A DNA stretch of 64,000 nt from Bacillota bacterium (lineage in GTDB: Bacteria > Bacillota_I > Bacilli_A > RF39 > UBA660): contig SVAI01000001.1 in the NCBI GenBank assembly GCA_015059495.1, positions 124,001 to 188,000 of the forward strand. The letters are read 5' to 3'. The position numbers and the translations under genes are program-made. This document shows positions 36,292 through 36,598 of this stretch, piece by piece. A model generated the notes under the pieces. The model saw nothing but the letters and a program-made list of their open reading frames with translations. It ran no database searches and had not been told where the DNA came from. Each line of letters begins with the position of its first letter. Positions within the stretch are counted from its first letter, which is position 1.

Positions 36292-36598
36292 GGAGGGATA
36301 GCGAAGTGGTCAAACGCGGCAGACTGTAGTCCTAATAACGACTCGTTATTAAATTGCACCTTTATATAGTGATATATAAAGTGGACGCTGCTAATTCGGG
36401 GAAGACTAAAGCATTTAATGTATGTTAATCCCGAGCTAAGATACTTTGATATCTGAGTGTAGAGACTTTACACAGCGTATCTCAACAGAGATAAAGAGAA
36501 AGTCCAGACTACAAATACATATTTGTAGCAGTGAAAACTGTAGTAGTAGGAAATCTGTTCCTTCGGGTTCCATGGTTCAAATCCATGTCCCTCCACCA
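36292..36598 (+). tRNA. tRNA-Tyr(GTA), interrupted by a group I intron in the anticodon
   Basis: Exon 1 36292-36327 ggagggatagcgaagtggtcaaacgcggcagactgt; exon 2 36551-36598 aaatctgttccttcgggttccatggttcaaatccatgtccctccacca; joined gives a full tRNA-Tyr with long variable arm. Confidence 0.92.
36328..36550 (+). mobile_element. ORF-less group I self-splicing intron (boundaries +/-1 nt)
   Basis: P2-like TTTATATA(36361-36368)/GTGA/TATATAAA(36373-36380); P3 ACGCTG(36385-36390)/CAGCGT(36473-36478); P4 TCGGG(36396-36400)/CCCGA(36430-36434); P6 AGATA/TATCT(36439-36454); P7 GACTT(36464-36468)/AAGTC(36500-36504); P8 TATCTC/AACA/GAGATA(36478-36493); P9 CTACAAAT/ACAT/ATTTGTAG(36509-36528); CAGT/GAAA/ACTG(36529-36540); U before 5' site, G at 3' end. 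Confidence 0.92.

What the first reader, a model, noticed from the sequence alone, without database searches (positions are those of the whole stretch)
36292..36598. Group I intron inside the anticodon of tRNA-Tyr(GTA)
Joining 36292-36327 to 36551-36598 restores a complete tRNA-Tyr with encoded CCA. The intervening ~223 nt fold into a group I core by eye: P3 ACGCTG/CAGCGT, P4 TCGGG/CCCGA, P6, P7 GACTT/AAGTC, P8, P9, plus GTGA- and GAAA-capped hairpins. The 5' site follows a U and the intron ends in G. Known bacterial tRNA group I introns that I can name sit in tRNA-Leu(UAA), Ile(CAU), Arg(CCU) and fMet; I do not recall a described tRNA-Tyr host, and insertion between U35 and A36 interrupts the anticodon itself. 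I could not confidently place P1/IGS. tRNA callers may miss this gene and report a genome with no tRNA-Tyr.
Basis: partly seen in the sequence, partly recalled or inferred. Interest (0 to 1): 0.9.

Follow-up and report, generated by a model that had tools for sequence, protein, structure and literature searches.

The report
Self-splicing intron splitting the tyrosine tRNA
This bacterium's only tyrosine tRNA gene is cut in two, inside its anticodon, by a ribozyme intron whose probable partner, a DNA-cutting gene, sits just outside the tRNA; the same pair recurs in other uncultured gut bacteria, and related introns occupy the tyrosine, threonine and asparagine tRNAs that share the same short target site.

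Summary
Joining 36292-36327 to 36551-36598 gives a canonical tRNA-Tyr(GUA) with CCA. The 223-nt insert matches Rfam group I (RF00028) at 58.9 bits. Two congeners carry it (99% and 92% identical); two other congeners and many same-family genomes have the clean empty site. It is the only tRNA-Tyr found in this single-contig genome. P1 can be placed: exon UGU pairs with IGS GCA (36356-36358), with U·G at the 5' splice site.

It is not a one-off. I resolved 33 tRNA-Tyr introns, all at 35|36, in uncultured Bacilli and Clostridia. They group with introns in tRNA-Thr(UGU) and tRNA-Asn(GUU); all three sites read UGU| and the IGS is GCA.

The ORF at 36690-37064, just downstream, is a PD-(D/E)XK homing endonuclease with the fold of I-Ssp6803I, the enzyme of the Synechocystis tRNA-fMet intron. 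Among the 33 loci it lies downstream of tRNA-Tyr in 14, inside the intron in 3, and was not found in 16. Strong relatives found without using the intron (3 genomes, 3 viral contigs) all lie beside or inside a tRNA-Tyr gene.

Most likely: a self-splicing intron plus flanking endonuclease, homing into tRNA-Tyr. Splicing and cleavage are untested. New host and arrangement within a known kind.

The parts
36292..36327 (+). tRNA-Tyr(GUA) 5' exon, ends at U35
   Evidence: Sequence; spliced form called tRNA-Tyr(gta) by ARAGORN; matches intronless relatives up to this point
36328..36550 (+). group I intron, 223 nt, no ORF, ends in omega-G (36550)
   Evidence: RF00028 58.9 bits; 92-99% identical copies in two congeners; covariation
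36551..36598 (+). tRNA-Tyr 3' exon, begins at A36, with encoded CCA
36325..36327 (+). P1, exon strand UGU (U36327 at the 5' splice site)
   Evidence: Pairs with IGS GCA; U.G at the splice site; IGS GCA read in all 33 tRNA-Tyr introns
36356..36358 (+). internal guide sequence GCA (P1); the preceding UU (36354-36355) can pair with the first AA of the 3' exon (P10)
   Evidence: the IGS changes with the host exon (CUU/GAG in Leu; GCA kept in Thr and Asn)
36360..36381 (+). P2 hairpin CTTTATATA-GTGA-TATATAAAG
36385..36390 (+). P3 5' strand ACGCTG
   Evidence: All six P3 pairs have changes on both sides across 106 introns
36396..36434 (+). P4 (TCGGGG 36396-36401 / TCCCGA 36429-36434) enclosing P5 (GAC 36404-36406 / GTT 36424-36426)
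36435..36458 (+). P6 (GC/GT) and P6a (GATA 36440-36443 / TATC 36450-36453)
36464..36468 (+). P7 5' strand GACTT (guanosine-binding helix)
   Evidence: 99.4% of cells paired, but almost invariant
36473..36478 (+). P3 3' strand CAGCGT
36479..36492 (+). P8 hairpin ATCTC/GAGAT
36500..36504 (+). P7 3' strand AAGTC
36509..36528 (+). P9 hairpin CTACAAA/TTTGTAG
36529..36540 (+). GAAA-capped hairpin CAGT-GAAA-ACTG (P9.1)
   Evidence: Helix 9: 100% paired, four of four pairs with changes on both sides
36610..36627 (+). predicted intrinsic terminator between tRNA-Tyr and the endonuclease gene
   Evidence: consensus match only
36636..36663 (+). promoter-like site of the endonuclease gene (TTTACT-16-TATAAT)
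   Evidence: consensus match only
36690..37064 (+). free-standing PD-(D/E)XK homing endonuclease gene, 124 aa (ATG start; the ORF list starts at TTG 36687)
   Evidence: PF11645 71.6 bits; only PDB sequence match 2OST = I-Ssp6803I; AlphaFold model pLDDT 89, top four fold matches all 2OST chains, TM 0.74-0.83
35880..35909 (+). 12/12 sigma-70-type promoter-like site upstream of the Ser-Met-Asp-Phe-Tyr tRNA run
   Evidence: consensus match only

Best explanation
The insert is a functional group I intron, resembling the IC3 type of other bacterial tRNA introns. It splices itself out of pre-tRNA-Tyr: the IGS GCA pairs with exon UGU, external guanosine attacks after U35, and the freed exon attacks after omega-G36550, restoring the GUA anticodon. 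Because this is the only tRNA-Tyr gene found in the genome, splicing must be efficient. The intron belongs to a clade of 'UGU' introns spread among tRNA-Tyr(GUA), tRNA-Thr(UGU) and tRNA-Asn(GUU), whose anticodon loops share UGU| at the insertion site. In the tRNA-Tyr branch the I-Ssp6803I-like endonuclease, encoded just downstream here and inside the intron elsewhere, most likely cuts the intronless tRNA-Tyr anticodon loop. Repair from the intron-bearing allele would copy the intron and co-convert the neighbouring endonuclease gene; the intron protects its own host from the cut. Shown: structure, covariation, exact insertion, single copy, distribution, endonuclease family and position. Inferred: self-splicing, cleavage site, homing, direction of spread.
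For: RF00028 match. Covariation of P3, P4/P5, P8 and P9.1. The IGS follows the exon (UGU/GCA in Tyr, Thr and Asn; CUU/GAG in Leu). Clean empty sites in relatives and copies in two congeners. Only tRNA-Tyr in the genome. 33 tRNA-Tyr introns at 35|36. The Tyr+Thr+Asn introns of Bacillota group together, SH-aLRT 99. Endonuclease: PF11645, 2OST by sequence and fold, D38, Q51 and K53 invariant in 40 relatives. In the family search the three strong endonuclease hits (G000, G079, G151) are all genomes with the tRNA-Tyr intron. All three viral hits lie within about 100 nt of, or inside, a tRNA-Tyr gene. In the 33 tRNA-Tyr loci it is downstream on the same strand in 14 (57-90 nt in 13, 565 nt in one), inside the intron in 3, not found in 16.
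Against: No splicing or cleavage data. The exon part of P1 is only 3 bp and P10 only 2 bp here, so host protein help cannot be excluded. The RF00028 score is modest. Sixteen of 33 tRNA-Tyr introns have no endonuclease nearby (a few loci end close by), so it is not required for maintenance. In two viral contigs (L196, L197) the endonuclease sits beside an intact intronless tRNA-Tyr, so the intron is not the only way to tolerate it. The tree does not prove several independent Tyr gains (AU p = 0.17 for one Tyr clade). The tRNA-Tyr loci from named genomes were found with a pattern inside the intron, which biases that sample.
Confidence: 0.85

Rival explanations
1. The intron is real and splices, but the downstream PD-(D/E)XK gene is an unrelated bystander nuclease, and the intron is now immobile and vertically inherited.
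For: Sixteen of 33 tRNA-Tyr introns lack the gene nearby, including the congeners G001 and G002. The window gene has its own promoter-like site and a terminator-like site before it.
Against: Strong relatives of the gene are found at tRNA-Tyr in every locus I could resolve, also in searches made with the protein and not with the intron. In three loci it lies inside the tRNA-Tyr intron. Its closest solved relative is the endonuclease of a tRNA group I intron.
Confidence: 0.13
2. The endonuclease was born in the intron (as in G151, G079 and L114) and later escaped to the flank; the flanking form is a step in its decay rather than a two-part mobile unit.
For: Both arrangements exist in the same bacterial family, and G001/G002 have no such gene.
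Against: The flanking arrangement is commoner and occurs in both Bacilli and Clostridia at a similar distance (57-90 nt in 13 of 14), which suggests a stable configuration. The proteins keep the invariant residues.
Confidence: 0.3
3. The intron is degenerate and tRNA-Tyr is supplied some other way.
For: No splicing data exist.
Against: Both exons and all core helices are intact, core pairs are kept by compensatory change, and no other tRNA-Tyr gene is found in the single-contig genome. The genome estimate is 92% complete, so a missed second copy is possible but unlikely.
Confidence: 0.03
4. It is an assembly or binning artefact.
For: None found.
Against: Single-contig genome, independent copies in G001 and G002, clean empty sites in many relatives.
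Confidence: 0.005

Closest known systems
Synechocystis PCC 6803 tRNA-fMet group I intron with I-Ssp6803I (PDB 2OST)
   Same: tRNA anticodon-loop group I intron with a PD-(D/E)XK endonuclease of the same family and fold
   Different: Host is tRNA-fMet; the endonuclease is in the intron there, but free-standing downstream here; 27% identity in the fold alignment
Cyanobacterial and plastid tRNA-Leu(UAA) introns
   Same: Group I core; insertion within the anticodon, after a U
   Different: Position 34|35 and IGS GAG; in my tree the (bacterial, non-cyanobacterial) Leu introns lie outside the Tyr/Thr/Asn clade
Azoarcus tRNA-Ile(CAU) and Agrobacterium tRNA-Arg(CCU) introns (IC3; from own knowledge)
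   Same: About 200 nt, no ORF, a 3-bp exon-IGS P1 with U.G at the splice site, GNRA-capped P2 and P9
   Different: Other hosts, insertion after position 36
Collaborative homing in T4-like phages (free-standing endonuclease serving a neighbouring intron; from own knowledge)
   Same: Endonuclease gene outside the intron, close enough to be co-converted
   Different: Here in an essential cellular tRNA gene; homing not shown

Membership tests
Group I intron | Conserved P3-P9 core | tested here: met
   RF00028 58.9 bits, over the gathering score of 50; covariation
Group I intron | P7 helix of the guanosine site | tested here: met
   GACTT/AAGTC, 99.4% paired over 106 introns, but nearly invariant, and its 3' strand is part of the search pattern
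Group I intron | U at the end of the 5' exon paired with G of the IGS (P1), intron ending in G | tested here: met
   U36327, G36356, G36550
Group I intron | Self-splicing with GTP | not testable with these tools
   Needs in vitro transcription
IC3 subgroup of bacterial tRNA introns | Subgroup-specific peripheral elements | tested here: inconclusive
   Size, GNRA-capped P2 and P9.1 and a simple P5 agree with IC3 from memory; no subgroup model was run
I-Ssp6803I-type PD-(D/E)XK homing endonuclease (PF11645) | Family sequence profile | tested here: met
   71.6 bits against a cut-off of 26.1
I-Ssp6803I-type PD-(D/E)XK homing endonuclease (PF11645) | Fold and active-site residues | tested here: met
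   Top four fold matches are 2OST chains; D38, Q51 and K53 invariant, aligned with the D...QxK of 2OST
I-Ssp6803I-type PD-(D/E)XK homing endonuclease (PF11645) | Cleaves the intronless allele | not testable with these tools
   Needs purified protein; genomic position at tRNA-Tyr is indirect support
Archaeal/eukaryotic-type tRNA intron | Canonical 37/38 position and short intron | tested here: not met
   Insertion at 35/36, 223 nt with a group I core

The most novel reading that the evidence does not exclude
A two-part mobile element in an essential cellular gene: a group I intron in tRNA-Tyr served by a separate endonuclease gene in the flank, kept in this arrangement across Bacilli and Clostridia, within a clade of introns that move between tRNA-Tyr, tRNA-Thr and tRNA-Asn because one 3-nt guide (GCA) fits the UGU in all three anticodon loops.
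Probability: 0.5. Interest if true: 0.75.

Novelty: new variant of a known kind. Interest (0 to 1): 0.6.

Why it matters
Bacterial tRNA introns in the papers I could search are reported mainly from cyanobacteria and proteobacteria, in tRNA-Leu, -fMet, -Ile and -Arg. This adds tRNA-Tyr, -Thr and -Asn hosts in uncultured gut Bacillota, explains genomes that seem to lack tRNA-Tyr, and gives a natural series (intron alone, endonuclease inside the intron, endonuclease beside the tRNA, intronless) in which the origin of mobile introns can be tested. The shared UGU| target offers a simple rule for how introns change host gene.

Tried and rejected
RF00028 over the whole window and the own genome gave no hit, so I made my own covariance model. 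The BLAST relatives search first suggested a single genus with the intron; the model search showed many more. I suspected twin introns in the tRNA-Leu loci L092, L111 and L163 because the model matched twice; the sequences show one intron whose core is split by an insert (an ORF in L111 and L092) in P6. A single origin of all tRNA-Tyr introns was tested and neither supported nor rejected. The endonuclease search in the wider phylum as sampled found no strong hit outside the family, and Clostridia could not be reached by the genome tool, so co-occurrence there rests on a biased sample. NCBIfam gave no hit for the endonuclease.

Full report
Observation. The sequence at 36292-36598 is a tRNA-Tyr gene split between U35 and A36 by 223 nt. 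ARAGORN does not see it in the window; the spliced sequence is called tRNA-Tyr(gta). RF00028 matches at 58.9 bits when the stretch is scanned alone, although the whole-window and whole-genome scans missed it. The genome is one contig of 1,256,952 bases and holds only this tRNA-Tyr, in two pieces.

Reality of the insertion. Among 60 relatives, two congeners carry the intron (99% and 92% identical over the gene), while two other congeners and many same-family genomes have tRNA-Tyr uninterrupted, matching exactly the two exons. Assembly artefact is excluded.

Structure. P3 to P9.1 can all be drawn. Over 106 distinct related introns the structure has 24 of 38 pairs with changes on both sides, and a covariation score of 0.330 against 0.134 in shuffles and at most 0.08 in slid controls. 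P7 is paired almost always but does not vary, and part of it lies in my search pattern, so it is weak evidence by itself. The alignment was fitted to my model, which leans towards the structure. P1 pairs exon UGU with GCA. In all 33 tRNA-Tyr introns I read GCA at this place, in tRNA-Leu introns GAG against exon CUU, and in the two tRNA-Asn introns GCA again, with the preceding bases UUA fitting the 3' exon UAA. The automatic count in that script required a following C, so it shows only 9 Tyr positives; the other 24 read TTGCAGC and were counted by eye from the printout.

Distribution. A covariance model of four introns found introns in 23 of 390 genomes of the family and in 11 of 398 of the class, ten of these in the same family. 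Brute-force splicing of these and the family loci resolved 33 tRNA-Tyr (35|36), 34 tRNA-Thr(UGU) (36|37), 24 tRNA-Leu(UAA) (34|35), 10 fMet, 4 Arg and 2 Asn introns, plus 3 unreliable calls. Two tRNA-Thr entries appear twice, since L104 and L161 appear to be the same contigs as in G238 and G230. The named hosts of the Tyr introns are labelled uncultured Bacilli and Clostridia.

Phylogeny. The Tyr, Thr and Asn introns of Bacillota form one group (SH-aLRT 99) that excludes Leu, fMet and Arg introns; two tRNA-Thr introns of Alphaproteobacteria (L075, L112) fall elsewhere, so the host tRNA alone does not decide the clade. Tyr introns are scattered among Thr introns in the best tree, but a single Tyr clade is not rejected (p = 0.17). 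In three genomes (G072, G208, G372) tRNA-Thr and tRNA-Tyr are neighbours and both carry introns; P2, P6 and P8 sequences agree within G072 and within G208/G372 more than across them, while P1 and the intron ends stay host-specific. This looks like gene conversion between the two introns, and shows that cores can be exchanged.

Endonuclease. The ORF at 36690-37064 belongs to PF11645; its only PDB sequence match and its best fold matches are 2OST, I-Ssp6803I. At least 1,340 related proteins exist. In 380 family genomes the three strong hits were all in genomes with the tRNA-Tyr intron. Three viral contigs found with the protein alone have it beside tRNA-Tyr (L196, L197) or inside the anticodon loop of a split tRNA-Tyr without a group I intron (L195). 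Among the 33 tRNA-Tyr loci it is downstream on the same strand in 14, inside the intron in 3, not found in 16.

Mechanism. The position of the endonuclease, its family and the loss of its likely target once the intron is present fit homing with co-conversion of the flank. That the enzyme cuts the tRNA-Tyr anticodon loop is inferred. Movement between tRNA genes could be by reverse splicing at UGU| sites or by recombination; the data do not separate these.

Literature. Within the held library, a 2014 review gives group I tRNA introns in bacteria as found in cyanobacteria and alpha- and beta-proteobacteria (PMC4033280); tRNAscan-SE 2.0 reports fMet and Ile2 cases (PMC8450103); a 2014 review of bacterial group I introns does not mention tRNA-Tyr and states that phage introns known then lay in protein genes (PMC3984707). 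No bacterial tRNA-Tyr, -Thr or -Asn group I host was found. Subscription literature was not searchable.

Verdict. A real, almost certainly functional group I intron in the sole tRNA-Tyr gene, in a host tRNA not described in the papers I could search, with a flanking homing endonuclease as its probable partner.

Noticed in passing
L050-L056, L061-L063: tRNA-Thr(UGU) introns of the same family carry an ORF with an HNH-like motif (CPNCHSLTSTYKGAN) in the P5 loop, some apparently frameshifted; G126 (L049) seems to keep only a remnant.
   Followed up: partly
L045/L062 (G372), L046/L061 (G208), L047/L063 (G072): Neighbouring tRNA-Thr and tRNA-Tyr introns are homogenised within genomes in their cores but keep host-specific ends: apparent gene conversion between introns.
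   Followed up: yes
L195:2841-3432: Viral contig in which the endonuclease gene plus a complete second tRNA-Tyr lie in the anticodon loop of a split tRNA-Tyr, with no group I intron.
   Followed up: partly
L198-L317 (viral contigs): Many IMG/VR contigs seem to have group I introns in tRNA genes (Leu, Arg, Asn, Tyr, Thr), against a 2014 review saying known phage introns lie in protein genes; viral origin of each contig not checked.
   Followed up: partly
L092, L111, L163: tRNA-Leu(UAA) introns in Bacilli with an HNH-like ORF (or its remnant) in the P6 loop.
   Followed up: partly
L060 (G001:C16): A congener carries a second group I intron in tRNA-Leu(UAA); the window's own tRNA-Leu(UAA) and tRNA-Thr(UGU) are intact.
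   Followed up: yes
L059 (G035): Group I intron in tRNA-Arg(UCU), 34|35.
   Followed up: partly
G391:C82 (L057, L064, L065): 410-kb contig, perhaps a large phage, with three intron matches in tRNA-like genes, in a MAG with 8% contamination.
   Followed up: no
L058 (G350:C56): Weak group I match that seems to lie in a protein-coding gene.
   Followed up: no
L075, L112: tRNA-Thr(UGU) introns in Alphaproteobacteria (Salipiger, Ruegeria) that group with Leu introns: perhaps a separate arrival at the same tRNA.
   Followed up: partly
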